Virus record (IMG/VR): IMGVR_UViG_3300047546_001659
Coordinates: 54,012-118,011 of that record
Length of the DNA: 64,000 nucleotides
Strand: one strand, 5' to 3'
Origin: a virus
In this document: in pieces, positions 17,151 through 25,261 of the stretch
Position numbering within the stretch: position 1 is the first letter of the stretch
Layout of the letters: each line of letters starts with the position of its first letter
Notes under the pieces: model-generated
Told to the model about the DNA's origin: nothing
Databases searched by the model: none
The model's input: the letters and a program-made list of their open reading frames with translations, nothing else
Position numbers and translations under genes: made by a program

Positions 17151-17755
17151 TGGGAATTTTTACTAACGTTCTTAAAGATGGTAGAACTTCTAGTTCATCT
17201 ACTGGCATTTTAAGACCAGGGACAGTTGATGCTCGTGATTGGTTTAGAGATAAAGCCAGAGAAGTAAGATCAGTACAAGTGGATTCTATAATAAGAAAAA
17301 ATCCTACTTACACAAGAACTACTATTAGACCTGGATTCATGTATCTTTTTAATTATGATCCAAAGATGAAAGATGAACTTCCTTACTATGATAGATTTCC
17401 TTTAGTGTTTCCTTTTGAGGCAACACCTGATGGGTTCTTGGGAATGAATATGCATTACATTCCTCATATCTACAGAGCAAGATTGATGGATAATCTTTAT
17501 GATCTAACCAATAATGAAAGATATGATGAAACAACCAAGCTCAGAGCATCGTATTCTATGCTTAATTCAGCCGCCCGCTATAAATACTTTAAACCTTGTA
17601 TTAAAAGATATCTATACTCTCATGTGAGAAGCAGATTTCTTTTGATACCAGCAAATGAATGGGATATAGCTTTATTTTTACCACTTGAAAGATTTGCTAA
17701 ATCAACAAAAAGTAAAGTATATAAAGATTCAAGGAATTATATAAATGGCCTTTAA
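17150..17755 (+). CDS. Conserved T4-like protein, possibly DNA end protector gp2
   Basis: 201 residues. 'IRPGFMYLFNYDPKMKDELPYYDRFPLVFPFEA', seen here as 'PGFMYLFNYDPK' and 'LPYYDRFPLVFPF', then 'GFLGMNMHYIPHIYRARLMD' and 'KPCIKRYLYSHVRSRFLLI', is a pattern I remember from T4-like marine phages next to gp4. Some such genes are labelled DNA end protector (gp2). I am sure it is a conserved late gene, less sure of the gp2 function. It overlaps the next gene by 11 bases. Confidence 0.55.
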   Translation: MGIFTNVLKDGRTSSSSTGILRPGTVDARDWFRDKAREVRSVQVDSIIRKNPTYTRTTIRPGFMYLFNYDPKMKDELPYYDRFPLVFPFEATPDGFLGMNMHYIPHIYRARLMDNLYDLTNNERYDETTKLRASYSMLNSAARYKYFKPCIKRYLYSHVRSRFLLIPANEWDIALFLPLERFAKSTKSKVYKDSRNYINGL

Positions 17756-18482
17756 TATTAGAGACATGATGGGGGCAATGAATGCCTCCGGAGGTCTAAC
17801 TAAAACTTCTAAATTTTTTGTTGAGGTTTATCCTCCAAGAAGTTTAGCTGTTAATCCTAATCTTTTCTTTTTGTGCGAGGCTGCAACATTACCAGGGGTA
17901 TCATGGCAAACTGATGAAATAAGAATGTCTGGATATGGTAATCTAGAAAAACGTCCGTATACACCAATTTTTCAAGATGTCAATTTAACTTTTTATAATG
18001 ATTCAAATAGTAAAGTGATGACATTCTTTCACAGATGGATGCAGACAATATTTAACTTTAATGCTTCTATCAATCCCAATTCAACAACTGCCGCAGGTCA
18101 ACCCATTAATACCCTTAACTATCCTAATGAATATAGAGGTATTGTTGAAATAATTCATTATGATGATGCAGGCGAACAGGTAGTTAAATATACAATGCAA
18201 GATGCATATCCAATTGCAATTGGTGATATTAATGTTGACTGGAATCAATCAGATCAGCTTGTAAGAATACCTGTAACATTTGCATATACTTATTGGTCTT
18301 CAGAAACACTTGATCCAGGGTTAGCCTCTTATAAATCACAAGCTATTTTCAATGCTACTCAATCTACTGCCTCAAGAGTAGATATGGAAAACAAAATTAT
18401 TTGGGAACTTCTCAACTTTACATCACCAGCCATAGTACAAAATAAAGTAAACATTCTAGCTGGTGTTTTATCATTTTTATAA
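17745..18482 (+). CDS. Tail-tube-fold protein (gp19/gp54 type)
   Basis: 245 residues. 'TSKFFVEVYPP', 'LFFLCEAATLPGVSWQTDEIR', 'FQDVNLTFYNDSNSKVMTFFHRWM' and 'YTMQDAYPIAIGDINVDW' give the tail-tube fold shared by gp19, gp48 and gp54 ('CE.A.LPG', 'F..W', 'DAYP'). With 245 residues and a place beside gp26 it may be the tube initiator gp54 rather than the major tube protein. Late expression as part of the plus-strand block. Confidence 0.7.
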   Translation: MAFNIRDMMGAMNASGGLTKTSKFFVEVYPPRSLAVNPNLFFLCEAATLPGVSWQTDEIRMSGYGNLEKRPYTPIFQDVNLTFYNDSNSKVMTFFHRWMQTIFNFNASINPNSTTAAGQPINTLNYPNEYRGIVEIIHYDDAGEQVVKYTMQDAYPIAIGDINVDWNQSDQLVRIPVTFAYTYWSSETLDPGLASYKSQAIFNATQSTASRVDMENKIIWELLNFTSPAIVQNKVNILAGVLSFL

Positions 18483-18499
18483 TATAAGGACTATTTGAA

Positions 18500-19198
18500 A
18501 TGGCACTACCTAAAATTAAACACCCAACATATAATGTTACTATACCTTCCAATAAACAGAAGGTTAACATTAGACCCTTTACTGTTCAAGAAGAAAAACT
18601 TCTTCTTATGGCAAGACAGTCAGAAAATGCTGAAGATTCCATCAATACAATTAAACAAATAATTACCAATTGTGTAATTGAAAGTATTGATGTTGATAAA
18701 TTAGCTACATTTGATATAGAATATTTGTTTGTCAAATTGAGAGCTAAATCAGTAGGTGAAATTGTTGAATTGGAATATAAAGATACTGAAACAAATGAAT
18801 CAATAAAATTCAAAGTAAATCTTGATGATGTGGAAATTAAATACAATCCAAACCACACAAATAAATTCATTATAAGTGGTGAGGTTGGAGTATCTATGAG
18901 ATATCCATCAATAAGCGAATTAAAACAAATAGAAAATGATATGATTGCAGATAAAACTATTACTGGAATCCTTAGTAAATGTATAGATAAAATTTTTGAT
19001 AATGATAATGTCTATACAGATTACACAGATTCAGAATTAGAAGAATTTATCAACAGTTTACCTGTTGAAGCTATGACGAAAATTAGAGAATTTTTTGAAA
19101 CAATGCCTTCACTTGAATATACAACAAAGGTTAAAAATAAAGCTGGTAAAGAAATAGATGTTGAATTGCGAGGAATCAACAATTTTTTTACGTATTGA
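18500..19198 (+). CDS. gp26: Baseplate hub/tail assembly protein gp26-like (zero-frame product)
   Basis: 232 residues. 'ALPKIKHPTYNVTIPSNKQK', 'IRPFTVQEEKLLLMARQSE', 'FDIEYLFVKLRAKSVGE' and 'VSMRYPSISE' match gp26-type proteins of T4-like phages. The last codons are AAT TTT TTT ACG TAT TGA, giving an in-frame T_TTT_TTT heptamer four codons before the stop. A -1 slip there would add about 60 residues that overlap the tape-measure start. This is the arrangement of G/GT-type tail assembly chaperones. A chaperone role is therefore inferred in addition to the gp26 label. Confidence 0.82.
   Translation: MALPKIKHPTYNVTIPSNKQKVNIRPFTVQEEKLLLMARQSENAEDSINTIKQIITNCVIESIDVDKLATFDIEYLFVKLRAKSVGEIVELEYKDTETNESIKFKVNLDDVEIKYNPNHTNKFIISGEVGVSMRYPSISELKQIENDMIADKTITGILSKCIDKIFDNDNVYTDYTDSELEEFINSLPVEAMTKIREFFETMPSLEYTTKVKNKAGKEIDVELRGINNFFTY
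19183..19189 (+). other. Candidate programmed -1 ribosomal frameshift site
   Basis: Seven Ts form an exact X_XXY_YYZ heptamer in the gp26 frame (AA T_TTT_TTT ACG). The zero-frame stop is at 19196-19198. After a -1 slip the frame stays open to a TAA at 19369-19371. The -1 frame is closed upstream by TGA at 19162, so the extension can hardly be an independent gene. Confidence 0.75.
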
Positions 19199-19371
19199 CC
19201 GGATATTCTAATATCTCGGTCTATTACAATACGTTGTTTTCTTTAGTACATCACCATAAATATTCATTGACAGAGGTTTATGATATGTATCCTTACGAAA
19301 GAGATCTATTTTTAGAATTGCTAATGATGCATATTAAGGACGTACAAGAAAGAAAGACACGTAATGGCTAA
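19189..19371 (+). CDS. -1 frame C-terminal extension of gp26-like protein (GT-type)
   Basis: Read from the slip, the extension runs YVLTGYSNISVYYNTLF, then 'SLVHHHKYSLTEVYDMYPYE' and 'RDLFLELLMMHIKDVQERKT', and stops at 19371. The 'HHKYSLTEVYDM.PYER' part looks like a conserved helical tail-chaperone motif. The only in-frame ATG before the conserved end (19285) would leave out half of the motif. The stop overlaps the tape-measure ATG by 8 bases (ATGGCTAA), the same overlap type used elsewhere here. Coordinates give the extension only; the fusion would be 18500-19371. Confidence 0.7.
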   Translation, partial: YVLTGYSNISVYYNTLFSLVHHHKYSLTEVYDMYPYERDLFLELLMMHIKDVQERKTRNG

Positions 19372-21727
19372 AAAAGAAACAGGCGAAGATATTCTCCGAG
19401 CTATTATGGAAAAAGGTGGTAAGGGTGGTGGTAGAGCTCAGCAAGCAGCTGCAGAGGCTCTTAATGATGCTGCTGAAAGTATTAAAGAAAATACCAGACA
19501 ACAGGCAAAAATTGGTGAAACCTTAGGTAACGTTTTTAATAATTTTAAAAATTCATTTTCCAGTGCTGGTGGTGGAGGCAGAGGTACGGGTGACGGAACA
19601 GGAGGCCTTGGTGGCCTTGGGGGCGGCGGAAGAAGAAATAATGTTCCAAATATATTATTAGATATCCTAAATGTAAATAGAAGTATCTTAAAATTTACTC
19701 ATTCTAATAATGATGTTCTTTATGATATTCTTGACGCTATTCGTGGCAATGAAAGAAGTAAAATTGAAGAACGTAGAGAAAGATCCACAAGAACTCAACC
19801 TACTGAAGGTACAGGTGCAGGAATAGGCAAAACTTTAACTGGTGCTGGTAATCTCTTTGGTGGTATGGGTAATTTATTGAGTGGATTGGGTGGCGGACTA
19901 GGTAAACTACTTGGTGGTGCAGGCATTGCAGCTTTTCTTTTATCAGAAGCTGATGCAGAAAAAATCAAAAAAAATATTGAAACCCTCTTATCAATTGGTG
20001 AGGGATATGAAAGCAAGCTTGATTTCCTAAAAGAAGGTGGAACTCTTGCTTTAATGTTATATGGAATAGGAACCGGTCTTTCTACATTTGCTATTGGACA
20101 ATTTGCAAATGTTATTACTCAATGGACTACTGGATTTTTAGGTAAAGAAAATTGGGCTGAAACAGTAAAAGATAATGTTGCTGATCTTTTAGAAATAGCT
20201 AATTTACCAAATAGTAATGTAGGTAATGTTGCTTGGCTTACAACGGCTTTGGTTGGTATAGGAACAGGGTTAGCTGTTTTTGGAATTGGTAAAGGCGTTG
20301 AGGGTGGGATTGAAGGTATAGTAAAGGGAATAGATTTCTTTACAAAAGATCAACCATTTGCCCAGAGGTTAAAAGATGAACTTGGAACTTTACTTTCAAT
20401 AGCAGATTTACCACACCAAAATGACGCAGGATGGTTAGCAGGTGCTTTGACTAAAATAGGACTTGGTTTAAGTGTGTTTGCATTAGGCAAAGGTTTAGAA
20501 GGTATTGCATATGCAGGTCAAGAAATAGTTGATTTCTTCACAGGACAACAACCCTTTGCACAAAGAATATATGATGAAGTAAAAACTCTATTATCAATTG
20601 CGGATATTCCTCATGCATCAGATGATGTAACATGGTTTGCTAATATGGCAGCAGGCATCACAGCCGGTTTGGGAGTATTTGCATTAGGAAAAGGGTTAGA
20701 AGGTGGCGTTAATGCTATAACTAGAATTGTTGATTTCTTCGCAGGTCAACAACCTTTTGCTGATAGAATTTATAATGAAGTAAAAACTTTATTATCAATT
20801 GCTGATATTCCTCACGCTTCTGAAAATGTAAATTGGTTTGCAGATGCAATGGCTGGTATAACTGCAGGACTTGGAGTGTTTGCATTAGGTAAGGGTTTAG
20901 AAGGCGGGGTCAATGCAGTAACCAAGATTATTGACTTTTTTACTGGAGATAAACCTTTTGCTCAGAGAATATATGATGAGGTTTCAAAATTATTATCAAT
21001 TACTAAAATTGACGCAGATGGCAAATCTTTCTTCTTAACGATGTCTGATATAGCTGCTGGTCTTGCAGCCTTTACTGTATCAGACTTTGCAAGTTCATTA
21101 GTTAATGTCGGAACTAGTATTTTAAATTTTATATCCGGAAAAAGTAGCCCGTTTGATAAGATTAAAGAATTAGCTAATGATGCTGATAAGTTAGAAAAAG
21201 GTGCCAATGCTTTAGAGAAAATTGCAAATGCATTGTCAACATTTTCTAATATTAAAACCGGTAATTTAGGTGATATTGATTTTGAAGGTATGGCAAAAAA
21301 TCTAGGTCAAGCCATACCATTATTAAATGCTCTCGCAAATGGTGGAACTTTATCTGCAGGTGGTTTATTCAGTTGGCTTAAATCAGATTTAGATTTTGGA
21401 AAAGGTATTCTTGATCCAAATCTAAAACTTGATCAGATGGCATCTGCAATTAGTAAGATTAACTACGTATTAGGTAGAACAACTGATATAACACCTGTTC
21501 AAGGCAATGCTCAAAACGTAAATGCAGCAACTAGACAAAACGCTGTTGATGGTGAAAGTCAAGGTAATAACATCATAGTTGTACCACCAGCAAATGGAAC
21601 TTCAAACGCTTCACGTGAACCACCTATGGTTCCTAGAAGTTCAGGGGCAGTTCAGACCGCCCCTGTTCCATCTTTATTTGATCGTCATATGTACGATAGT
21701 GCTTACTTTGGTGCTGGACACCCTTAA
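19364..21727 (+). CDS. Tail tape-measure candidate (gp29 position) built from six repeats
   Basis: 787 residues. The N-terminus is Ala/Lys-rich and helical, followed by a Gly-rich stretch (residues about 68-90) and 'VNRSILKFTHSNNDVLYDIL'. Residues 208-609 consist of six units of 66-68 residues, each starting 'LLSIADIPHAS'-like and containing 'GLGVFALGKGLEG' and 'DFF.G.QPFAQRIYDEV'. The place directly after the frameshifting gp26-like gene is where tape measures lie in most tailed phages. No peptidase or lysozyme domain is visible. Its TAA overlaps the gp32 stop from the opposite strand. Confidence 0.65.
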   Translation: MAKKETGEDILRAIMEKGGKGGGRAQQAAAEALNDAAESIKENTRQQAKIGETLGNVFNNFKNSFSSAGGGGRGTGDGTGGLGGLGGGGRRNNVPNILLDILNVNRSILKFTHSNNDVLYDILDAIRGNERSKIEERRERSTRTQPTEGTGAGIGKTLTGAGNLFGGMGNLLSGLGGGLGKLLGGAGIAAFLLSEADAEKIKKNIETLLSIGEGYESKLDFLKEGGTLALMLYGIGTGLSTFAIGQFANVITQWTTGFLGKENWAETVKDNVADLLEIANLPNSNVGNVAWLTTALVGIGTGLAVFGIGKGVEGGIEGIVKGIDFFTKDQPFAQRLKDELGTLLSIADLPHQNDAGWLAGALTKIGLGLSVFALGKGLEGIAYAGQEIVDFFTGQQPFAQRIYDEVKTLLSIADIPHASDDVTWFANMAAGITAGLGVFALGKGLEGGVNAITRIVDFFAGQQPFADRIYNEVKTLLSIADIPHASENVNWFADAMAGITAGLGVFALGKGLEGGVNAVTKIIDFFTGDKPFAQRIYDEVSKLLSITKIDADGKSFFLTMSDIAAGLAAFTVSDFASSLVNVGTSILNFISGKSSPFDKIKELANDADKLEKGANALEKIANALSTFSNIKTGNLGDIDFEGMAKNLGQAIPLLNALANGGTLSAGGLFSWLKSDLDFGKGILDPNLKLDQMASAISKINYVLGRTTDITPVQGNAQNVNAATRQNAVDGESQGNNIIVVPPANGTSNASREPPMVPRSSGAVQTAPVPSLFDRHMYDSAYFGAGHP
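19985..21190 (+). repeat. Six tandem ~67-codon repeats in the tape-measure candidate
   Basis: Unit lengths by eye are 67, 68, 66, 67, 67 and 67 residues, each beginning LL(S/E)I. Units 3-5 are most alike ('ALGKGLEG', 'QQPFAQRIYDEV'); units 1 and 6 are diverged but keep length and the starting LLSI. Constant unit size over diverged sequence suggests selection on length. Confidence 0.8.
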
Positions 21728-23280: not shown

Positions 23281-23510
23281 ATAGGTAATCTACCCGATCT
23301 TCTTACAAGGTTAAGATTTTCAGCTTCTATTTGAATTTTTGCTTTTAATACTGTACTCTGTTTAATTAGTGAAGCAGCAGTTTCAACTTCAATGTTATTT
23401 GACTCACAGTAATGCATTACAGCGTCAAAATATGTCAAACCTTTAACTGAAGCTAACCTGTCAATTTCTTTTACAAAGTCAGCAGAGGATTTTATATTAC
23501 TTATTTTCAT
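23277..23510 (-). CDS. gp33: Late transcription coactivator gp33
   Basis: 77 residues. 'VKGLTYFDAVMHYCESNNIEVE' (family 'Y.DAV.HYCE..N.EIE'), 'AASLIKQST' and the end 'LNLVRRSGRLPI' fit gp33 of T4-like marine phages. gp33 links RNA polymerase to the sliding clamp for late promoters, which agrees with the (N)ATAAATA elements in this window. Its start overlaps the ketosynthase gene end by 14 bases, so the late coactivator is tied to the acyl-chemistry pair in one transcript. Confidence 0.85.
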   Translation of the reverse strand: MKISNIKSSADFVKEIDRLASVKGLTYFDAVMHYCESNNIEVETAASLIKQSTVLKAKIQIEAENLNLVRRSGRLPI

Positions 23511-24666
23511 CTATATTTCTTTTAAATGCAAGTGTTATGTTTGTGCCACCAAAACCAAATGAATTATTGAGAACTATATTTTGTTCAGTTTCATATGGAA
23601 CATTTGGTAGGAAAATTTCTTCTGATATGCTTTCGTCTTTTTCATCTAAATTCCAATTTGGAATTATTACACTATTTTCAAGAACAGTAATACAGGCTAA
23701 TGATTCAATAGCACCGGCTGCACCAAATAAATGTCCGTGCAATCCTTTAGTAGAGCTGATGGGAATATTCGATGTATATTTACCAAAAATATTTTCTATG
23801 CTTTTTAACTCTACAAGATCACCAATTGGTGTACCAGTTCCATGAGCATTAATATAAGTTACATCTTGAATATCAAAATCCTTTAAAGCAAGAGACATAC
23901 ATTTAACCTGGCCTTCAGTGTTTGGTTTAGTTACAGATTCAGAACCATTTGATACACCATATCCAACTATTTCACAATATATTTTTGCATTTCTTGCAAT
24001 AGCTTTATCGTAATTTTCTAGAATGAATATTACTGAACCTTCTGACATTGTAATACCATTTCTATTTTTAGAAAAGGGTTTACAATCACTACTTAGCGCA
24101 TTCATAGCTTTCCAATAGGCAAATTGCAATTCATTAATACAAGCCTCAGAACCACCAGCTGCTAGACAATCATATTCACCATAAGCAATCTTCTTATAAG
24201 CTTCACCTATAGCTGTAGAGGAAGATGAACAAGCTGTCGAATAAGTAAAAGCGGGACCTTTTAAACCATCTTTAAGAGCTATAAAGTTAGCACCCATATT
24301 AACAACAGAACAAATTAATGCAGAGGGTTTAACTTTTCCTTTTGCAAATAAAGATTTATATGACTCTTCATAAGCTATAGCACCACCACCATATCCAACA
24401 CCTAATAATATTCCCTCTGGATAATTGGAACTATCATTAATAGCATCTTTATAAGATAACCAAGCAAGCCTTGTAAACCTATCTGTAATGTTTAGATCAA
24501 ACCTATCAAAATGACTATCAACATCCTCAGAAACAACATAAGAAGATGAATCAAACATATCTTGTTTAGATCCAAATACACCTCTTATAAATGAATTTTT
24601 TACTGTGGGGTAATCATTGCCAATTGGCGTTCTGCAACCTATACCTGTAATTGCAACTCTGTTCAT
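23497..24666 (-). CDS. 3-oxoacyl-ACP synthase (KAS II / FabF-like ketosynthase)
   Basis: 389 residues, near the usual 410. All catalytic residues are present: Cys146 in 'STACSSSS', His275 in 'NAHGTGTPIGD', Lys307 in 'SSTKG' and His312 in 'GHLFGAAGAIES'. 'SFGFGGTNITLAF' closes the fold. The family condenses malonyl-ACP with an acyl thioester. It starts inside the ACP stop (ATGA, 4-base overlap), so the pair is co-translated, and it overlaps gp33 downstream. No other chain-building enzymes are in the window, so it may use host FabD/FabG, or work as a specialised ketosynthase. Function of the product is unknown. Confidence 0.93.
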   Translation of the reverse strand: MNRVAITGIGCRTPIGNDYPTVKNSFIRGVFGSKQDMFDSSSYVVSEDVDSHFDRFDLNITDRFTRLAWLSYKDAINDSSNYPEGILLGVGYGGGAIAYEESYKSLFAKGKVKPSALICSVVNMGANFIALKDGLKGPAFTYSTACSSSSTAIGEAYKKIAYGEYDCLAAGGSEACINELQFAYWKAMNALSSDCKPFSKNRNGITMSEGSVIFILENYDKAIARNAKIYCEIVGYGVSNGSESVTKPNTEGQVKCMSLALKDFDIQDVTYINAHGTGTPIGDLVELKSIENIFGKYTSNIPISSTKGLHGHLFGAAGAIESLACITVLENSVIIPNWNLDEKDESISEEIFLPNVPYETEQNIVLNNSFGFGGTNITLAFKRNIDENK

Positions 24667-24920
24667 TTATGATCCATATTATCATAAATGTAATCAACTA
24701 ATCCATTCAATGTTGTTGCAATGTCTTCTATTGTAATTGAATTTATTTCAAAAACATCTTCAAGTTCAAAAAGAATATTAATGACTTCCATAGAATCTAA
24801 TTTTTCATTTAATTCTTGAAGTCTGTTGAGAGGGAAATCACTATCTAAAACATTTATGTTAATATTATAATTTTTATTAAAGTAGGTAGCAATGGTTTCA
24901 CGGATTTCATCTTTTGTCAT
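24663..24920 (-). CDS. Acyl carrier protein
   Basis: 85 residues from ATG 24920. GAGG at 24926-24929 is 5 bases before this ATG; the adjacent ATG at 24923 is too close, and a further upstream start would run into the tmRNA. 'LNEKLDSMEVINILFELEDVF' has the ACP phosphopantetheine motif D-S-M (Ser43) and the following acidic helix II. The family carries acyl chains on a 4'-phosphopantetheine arm. The gene is followed by the ketosynthase with a 4-base overlap and is preceded by the tmRNA hairpin, so it may be made from the tmRNA promoter by read-through. Confidence 0.88.
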   Translation of the reverse strand: MTKDEIRETIATYFNKNYNININVLDSDFPLNRLQELNEKLDSMEVINILFELEDVFEINSITIEDIATTLNGLVDYIYDNMDHK

Positions 24921-24941
24921 CATAACCTCATAATAAATGGT

Positions 24942-25226
24942 GGAGAGATTCTGTTTCCAAGCTCTCTCCGGGCTCATATCAAGCAGCGAGTGCTAGATTA
25001 GGTGCAAAGTTATCGTTTGCATTTAGTTTTGTCGCTTCAGTCTCGATCTTGTCTTTACTACACCTGTCGATCCTATTTCGCCCCCATCAAAGATACAGCA
25101 AAGAAGATTTATTTACTGCTGACTCTAATCTTCTATCCAGCATCACTTCTGTATCTATGGTGGAGGCGGAGGGTATCGCACCCTCGTCCAGTATGTCTAT
25201 TCTACTAGATGTCAACAACATCAGCA
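24942..25226 (-). ncRNA. ssrA: Circularly permuted two-piece tmRNA (ssrA)
   Basis: On the minus strand the acceptor piece comes first and ends CGCCTCC-A-CCA (CCA at 25160-25158). It has a T-arm GAGGG/CCCTC (25185-25169) with loop TGCGATA. An intervening segment (25157-25086) folds into nested 8-bp stems AGATACAG/CTGTATCT and AGAAGATT/AATCTTCT. The coding piece starts GGGGGCG at 25085, pairing with CGCCTCC and giving a G3-U70 pair, the alanine identity mark. The tag frame 25020-24979 reads ANDNFAPNLALAA then TGA. A GGAGAGA/TCTCTCC hairpin (24942-24969) may close the coding piece or end transcription. It frees stalled ribosomes and tags the product for ClpXP. Exact ends are estimates. Confidence 0.95.
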
Positions 25227-25230
25227 ATTA

Positions 25231-25261
25231 TATTTATAGCATATAATTAATTAAATGTCAA
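25231..25261 (-). promoter_or_regulatory. tmRNA promoter, sigma70 and late elements combined
   Basis: Minus strand: TTGACA (25261-25256), a 17-base spacer, then TATAAA (25238-25233), an almost ideal sigma70 promoter. The -10 extends to TATAAATA (25238-25231), which is also the T4 late consensus. Start of RNA is expected near 25226. The tmRNA could thus be read both by unmodified host polymerase early and by the gp33-dependent late enzyme. Confidence 0.8.

What the first reader, a model, noticed from the sequence alone, without database searches (positions are those of the whole stretch)
19183..19371. Exact -1 slippery heptamer at the end of gp26-like gene, opening onto a conserved-looking extension before the tape measure
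T_TTT_TTT in frame, stop four codons later, and a -1 frame open for 60 codons that ends in an 8-base overlap with the tape-measure ATG. The -1 frame is closed just upstream, so it must be entered by shifting. This matches lambda G/GT logic. I am not aware of it being described for the T4 lineage gp26. It suggests gp26 is a tail-assembly chaperone.
Basis: partly seen in the sequence, partly recalled or inferred. Interest (0 to 1): 0.75.

Follow-up and report, generated by a model that had tools for sequence, protein, structure and literature searches.

The report
Phage tail-chaperone frameshift site
A virus gene ends at a spot where some ribosomes slip back one base and so make a longer second version of a tail-building helper protein; this arrangement is already reported for relatives of phage T4, and this phage is a well-supported new example with a clear RNA hairpin that probably drives the slip.

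Summary
The gp26-like gene (18500-19198) carries an in-frame T_TTT_TTT at 19183-19189, a stop as the third codon after it, and a -1 frame that stays open to 19371. The extension is coding: dN/dS about 0.05-0.2, and homologous to PHROG 634, the C-terminal part of T4-type gp51. All 80 relatives from the first scan, all 71 readable ones from a second scan, and 9 of 12 named phages keep T_TTT_TTY and a -1 extension. Only 1 of 96 such heptamers in window ORFs opens onto a long extension. The predicted gp26 N-terminal domain matches solved tail assembly chaperones best (HK97 2OB9, Z 7.8). T4 gp51 aligns full length with the frameshift fusion, and T4 gp26 ends where the shift occurs.

Vladimirov, Gautam and Davidson (Virology 2022) reported frameshifted tail assembly chaperones in T4-like phages, with separate genes 26 and 51 in T4.

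New here, as far as I could check: a covarying hairpin 7 nt after the heptamer in this clade (30 of 31 representatives exceed synonymous shuffles), and a Shine-Dalgarno-like stimulator under codon-level selection across the wider family. No protein evidence exists.

The parts
18500..19198 (+). gp26-like gene, short chaperone form (TAC-N), 232 aa
   Evidence: PF12322 T4_baseplate 9e-62, phrog_150 2e-66; predicted fold of residues 1-87 resembles HK97 and prophage tail assembly chaperones
19183..19189 (+). slippery heptamer T_TTT_TTT, in frame
   Evidence: T_TTT_TTY in all 80 plus 71 IMG/VR relatives and 46 of 49 representatives
19196..19198 (+). 0-frame stop codon TGA that ends the short form
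   Evidence: one codon between slip site and stop in 36 of 46 representatives
19197..19221 (+). RNA stem-loop GACCGGATAT-TCTA-ATATC-T-CGGTC, 7 nt after the heptamer; probable stimulator
   Evidence: z -4.3, 0/200 synonymous shuffles, z -3.8 against dinucleotide shuffles of 19190-19240; 96.6% of cells paired and 4 pairs with changes on both sides in 35 relatives, 0/500 column shuffles
19183..19371 (+). -1 frame extension (TAC-C domain, gp51-like), 62 codons including the two slip codons
   Evidence: phrog_634 'baseplate hub assembly catalyst' 1.5e-15; dN/dS about 0.05-0.2 in measurable pairs; conserved FFY..GY.N...YY...FSL..HHKYSL..V..MYPYERDL
19170..19174 (+). weak Shine-Dalgarno-like GAGGA upstream of the heptamer; the element is strong in the wider family but not shown to be selected here
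   Evidence: family-wide z about -10 against synonymous shuffles, but window clade members do not differ from shuffles
19364..21727 (+). 787-aa ORF overlapping the extension by 8 bases; probable tape measure protein
   Evidence: position directly after the chaperone; internal repeats about 67 aa long; no family or sequence match, so the role is inferred
17745..18482 (+). tail tube protein gene just upstream
   Evidence: PF23849 Phage_TTP_2 5.7e-14, phrog_45 tail tube 1.2e-34

Best explanation
This is a programmed -1 ribosomal frameshift that makes two forms of one tail assembly chaperone. Most ribosomes stop at 19196-19198 and release the 232-aa short form (gp26-like, TAC-N). Some slip back one base on U_UUU_UUU, helped in this clade by a hairpin starting 7 nt downstream, and add a 60-residue gp51-like domain to give a 290-aa long form (TAC-NC). 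By analogy with lambda gpG/gpGT, the short form coats the tape measure protein encoded next, and the extension recruits the tail tube protein encoded just upstream. Shown by comparison: the slip site, the coding extension, the hairpin and the chaperone-like fold. Inferred: that shifting happens, its efficiency, and the binding partners.
For: Canonical heptamer in frame with an open -1 extension, unique among 96 heptamers in the window. T_TTT_TTY kept in all 80 + 71 relatives. T before Phe-Phe in 46 of 46 representatives versus 28 expected. Directly after the slip the 0-frame residue varies (T, G, I, V, D, E, S, A) while the -1 residue is only R, Y or F, so the -1 frame is translated from the slip site itself. 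Extension under purifying selection and homologous to gp51. Hairpin at 7-nt spacing with compensatory changes. T4 gp51 aligns over nearly all of the fusion profile (E 8.5e-14), and T4 gp26 over the short form, ending at the shift point (E 4.8e-22). The four best structural matches of the gp26 model (Z 7.8, 7.8, 7.3, 5.3; next 2.5) are HK97 chaperone 2OB9, two prophage-type proteins (3FGX, YqbN 3KLU) and PICI ORF19 (5IR0).
Against: No protein or reporter data. The Shine-Dalgarno element that marks the wider family is weak in the window's own clade. The structural match has middling Z, 10-12% identity for the top three, and Foldseek alone gave no significant hit. The tape-measure identity of the next ORF rests on position and repeats only.
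Confidence: 0.94

Rival explanations
1. The extension is a separate small gene (gp51) translated by re-initiation at TTG 19195, which overlaps the gp26 stop as TTGA; the heptamer is incidental. This is how many cyanophage records annotate it.
For: A TTG lies at codon 4 of the -1 frame in the window; S-PM2, P-SSM2, DLP6 and others are annotated with a separate gp51.
Against: Relatives have no start codon until codon 10 or later in 24 of 47 representatives, yet the residues right after the slip (FF[RY]) are conserved in the -1 frame. The heptamer is kept against synonymous drift, and a hairpin sits at the right spacing. T4 gp51 carries the chaperone domain fused to the extension.
Confidence: 0.03
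2. The two forms arise by transcriptional slippage on the run of seven T, giving a mixed mRNA population rather than ribosomal frameshifting.
For: The window's site is a homopolymer of seven T; polymerase slippage on longer homopolymer runs is established in other systems (own knowledge).
Against: About half the representatives have TTTTTTC with only six T (25 of 46). The covarying downstream hairpin and, in relatives, a Shine-Dalgarno-like element at about 10 nt are ribosomal stimulators; the published range for -1 shifting is 9-14 nt (PMC5009743).
Confidence: 0.03

Closest known systems
Tail assembly chaperones of T4-like phages, gp26/gp51 (Vladimirov, Gautam and Davidson 2022)
   Same: Same gene family (PF12322), same poly-T -1 site reported for T4-like phages (PMC12846349), same split of short form and extension; T4 itself uses separate genes (PMC10885494; reproduced).
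   Different: This clade adds a covarying hairpin 7 nt downstream. I could not read the 2022 paper itself, so whether it covers this clade or any stimulator is unknown.
Phage lambda gpG/gpGT
   Different: No sequence similarity shown; slip site and stimulators differ; the 2016 review (PMC5009743) still listed T4 as the exception.
Escherichia coli dnaX frameshift signal
   Same: Heptamer, downstream stem-loop and upstream Shine-Dalgarno-like element at about 10 nt; some relatives here (for example P-SSM2) carry all three.
   Different: dnaX shifting yields a shorter product; here it yields a longer one. In the window's clade only the hairpin is supported.
Vandenendeviridae and Andersonviridae chaperone locus (phage Adele, PMC12846349)
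   Different: GTTTTT motif rather than T_TTT_TTY, and different phage families.

Membership tests
[quoted passage not shown]
Frameshifted tail assembly chaperone (G/GT type) | Alternative-frame extension under protein-level selection | tested here: met
   dN/dS about 0.05-0.2; phrog_634 match; conserved alignment
Frameshifted tail assembly chaperone (G/GT type) | Gene lies directly upstream of the tape measure gene | tested here: inconclusive
   787-aa ORF with about 67-aa repeats follows with an 8-base overlap, but it has no recognisable family
Frameshifted tail assembly chaperone (G/GT type) | Short form has the tail assembly chaperone fold | tested here: met
   AlphaFold2 model pLDDT 85; top VIA-align matches are HK97 TAC 2OB9 Z 7.8, 3FGX 7.8, YqbN 3KLU 7.3, then 5IR0 5.3, next 2.5, all within residues 1-95; middling Z, so moderate support
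Frameshifted tail assembly chaperone (G/GT type) | Both protein forms are made, in a biased ratio, and are absent from the virion | not testable with these tools
   needs reporter assay and proteomics
T4-type gp26 (PF12322) | Profile match above the curated cut-off | tested here: met
   209 bits against a cut-off of 24.5
T4-type gp51 | Extension homologous to the gp51 C-terminus, with gp51 equal to the chaperone domain plus extension | tested here: met
   T4 gp51 residues 7-244 align with fusion profile positions 13-284, E 8.5e-14
Shine-Dalgarno-stimulated -1 frameshift (dnaX type) | Upstream Shine-Dalgarno-like element under codon-level selection | tested here: inconclusive
   met family-wide (z about -10, controls mean 0.6, minimum -1.9) but not in the window's own clade

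The most novel reading that the evidence does not exclude
Chaperone frameshift sites across the T4 lineage share one slip site, but lineages stimulate it with different combinations of elements: a Shine-Dalgarno-like GGAGG about 10 nt upstream in many cyanophage-like groups, and a covarying stem-loop 7 nt downstream in this clade. That set of stimulators would not have been described before.
Probability: 0.5. Interest if true: 0.35.

Novelty: new member of a known kind. Interest (0 to 1): 0.25.

Why it matters
It supports with independent data that most T4-type phages make their tail assembly chaperone by frameshifting, and that gp51, long annotated as a separate 'hub assembly catalyst', is in these phages the frameshift extension; many database annotations would then be wrong. 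The hairpin and Shine-Dalgarno elements give specific, easily tested predictions about how the ratio of the two forms is set.

Tried and rejected
Re-initiation at TTG 19195: rejected because -1 residues before any start codon are conserved. Transcriptional slippage: disfavoured because half the family has only six T. A simple trade-off between Shine-Dalgarno strength and hairpin strength across the family: tested, no correlation (Spearman -0.10, p 0.37). A Shine-Dalgarno stimulator for the window itself: GAGGA is present, but its clade does not exceed synonymous shuffles. Family and sequence searches for the downstream ORF found nothing useful. Sequence search of solved structures with the gp26 profile found no phage protein; Foldseek alone gave nothing significant, though HK97 TAC appeared at ranks 7 and 18. 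The 2022 Virology paper is not held, so its details rest on two citing papers and my memory of the abstract.

Full report
What is there. The gp26-like gene runs 18500-19198 and ends ...AAC AAT TTT TTT ACG TAT TGA. T19183_TTT_TTT is a canonical X_XXY_YYZ heptamer in frame. The -1 frame from the heptamer has 62 sense codons, ends at 19369-19371 and overlaps the next ATG (19364) by 8 bases. The -1 frame is closed 6 codons upstream of the heptamer. The window is part of a 118-kb virus record.

More than chance. Among 63 ORFs of at least 100 aa in the window there are 96 in-frame X_XXY_YYZ heptamers; this is the only one whose -1 frame runs far past the 0-frame stop (173 nt against 8 for the runner-up).

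Conservation of the site. In the first IMG/VR scan, 80 of 80 relatives have nnT TTT TTY within a few codons of the gp26 stop and an open -1 extension. A second scan centred on the window's clade gave 71 of 71 readable loci, a few of them the same contigs. Of 12 named phages from cyanobacterial, Sinorhizobium, Stenotrophomonas, Rhizobium, Vibrio, Aeromonas, Cronobacter, Acinetobacter and Salmonella hosts, nine have T_TTT_TTY, Rhizobium RL2RES has T_TTT_TTG, and two (Vibrio K444, Salmonella SFP10) have a degenerate T-rich site. The codon before Phe-Phe ends in T in 46 of 46 canonical representatives; own codon usage predicts 28. The residue after the slip varies in the 0 frame (eight residue types) but is only R, Y or F in the -1 frame, so the -1 frame is read from the slip site itself.

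The extension is coding and is gp51. It matches PHROG 634, 'baseplate hub assembly catalyst', at 1.5e-15. Among close relatives changes concentrate at -1-frame third positions, and dN/dS is about 0.05-0.2 where dS could be estimated. Cyanophage records annotate the same stretch as a separate gp51. Sullivan et al. 2010 had noted that cyanophage gp51 is only about a fifth of the length of other gp51 and lacks the first ~200 residues (PMC3037559); the frameshift explains this. T4 gp51 aligns over residues 7-244 with the full fusion profile (E 8.5e-14), and T4 gp26 aligns with the short form and ends at the shift point (E 4.8e-22). T4 gene 26 ends GAG TTC TTT GAG TTA CTA TAA, without the heptamer. 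In T4 the two genes are divergently transcribed neighbours.

Chaperone identity. The AlphaFold2 model of the gp26-like protein (mean pLDDT 85) was compared with solved structures. VIA-align puts HK97 tail assembly chaperone 2OB9 (Z 7.8, 84 residues, 3.9 A), 3FGX (7.8), YqbN 3KLU (7.3) and PICI ORF19 5IR0 (5.3) on top, all in the N-terminal 95 residues, with the next row at 2.5. Z is middling and Foldseek E-values are not significant, so I count this as moderate support. Gene order (tail tube gene upstream, large repeat-containing ORF downstream) fits.

Stimulators. In the window an RNA hairpin at 19197-19221 starts 7 nt after the heptamer. It exceeds synonymous -1-frame shuffles (0/200, z -4.3) and dinucleotide shuffles (z -3.8). 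In 35 relatives 96.6% of cells pair, four pairs show changes on both sides (9 cells; 0 of 500 column shuffles reach this), and one pair occurs as CG, GC, AU and UA. In the clade above 50% identity to the window, 30 of 31 representatives have more structure than nearly all synonymous shuffles, against 14 of 47 others. Related sequences are not independent, so the counts of shuffles are not probabilities. Across the wider family an upstream Shine-Dalgarno-like element (typically GGAGGG) sits about 10 nt before the heptamer, stronger than synonymous shuffles allow (z about -10; 40 control positions average 0.6, minimum -1.9). The window's own clade shows no such excess. The published spacing for -1 stimulation is 9-14 nt (PMC5009743). 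I found no simple trade-off between the two elements.

What is known. The 2016 recoding review names T4 as the exception to G/T-type frameshifting (PMC5009743). [quoted passage not shown] Two citing papers state that poly-T -1 signals are known in TAC-N genes of T4-like phages (PMC12846349) and that some T4-like phages instead carry one short and one fused gene (PMC10885494). From memory of that abstract, which I could not open, frameshifting is conserved in several T4-like groups and T4 uses genes 26 and 51. The RNA stimulators may be new; a text search did not find them described.

Noticed in passing
window 24888-25259 (-): A tmRNA of the permuted, alphaproteobacterial type (Rfam alpha_tmRNA 2.3e-33 and tmRNA_permuted 5.4e-21; tag ANDNFAPNLALAA) encoded by the phage; hints at an alphaproteobacterial host.
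   Followed up: no
window 23497-24977 (-): A beta-ketoacyl synthase gene (PF00109 1e-34, PF02801 1.9e-32) followed by a small ORF that reads like an acyl carrier protein but has no Pfam match, adjoining the tmRNA; possible auxiliary metabolic genes.
   Followed up: partly
window 19364-21727 (+): Putative tape measure protein has several similar repeats about 67 aa long and matches nothing in the phage collection.
   Followed up: partly
L085 (Vibrio phage K444) and L091 (Salmonella phage SFP10), end of the gp26-like gene: The -1 extension is present but the canonical heptamer is not (T-rich CTTTTTG and ATTTTCA instead); the shift site in these groups is unresolved.
   Followed up: no
L028, L051, L056, L092, L093, downstream of the heptamer: Strong downstream hairpins unrelated in sequence to the window's hairpin, including one of -20 kcal/mol in L051; suggests hairpins arose more than once.
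   Followed up: no
public cyanophage records such as L082 (S-PM2) and L093 (P-SSM2): gp51 is annotated as a stand-alone gene from an internal start; it is better read as the frameshift extension of gp26.
   Followed up: partly
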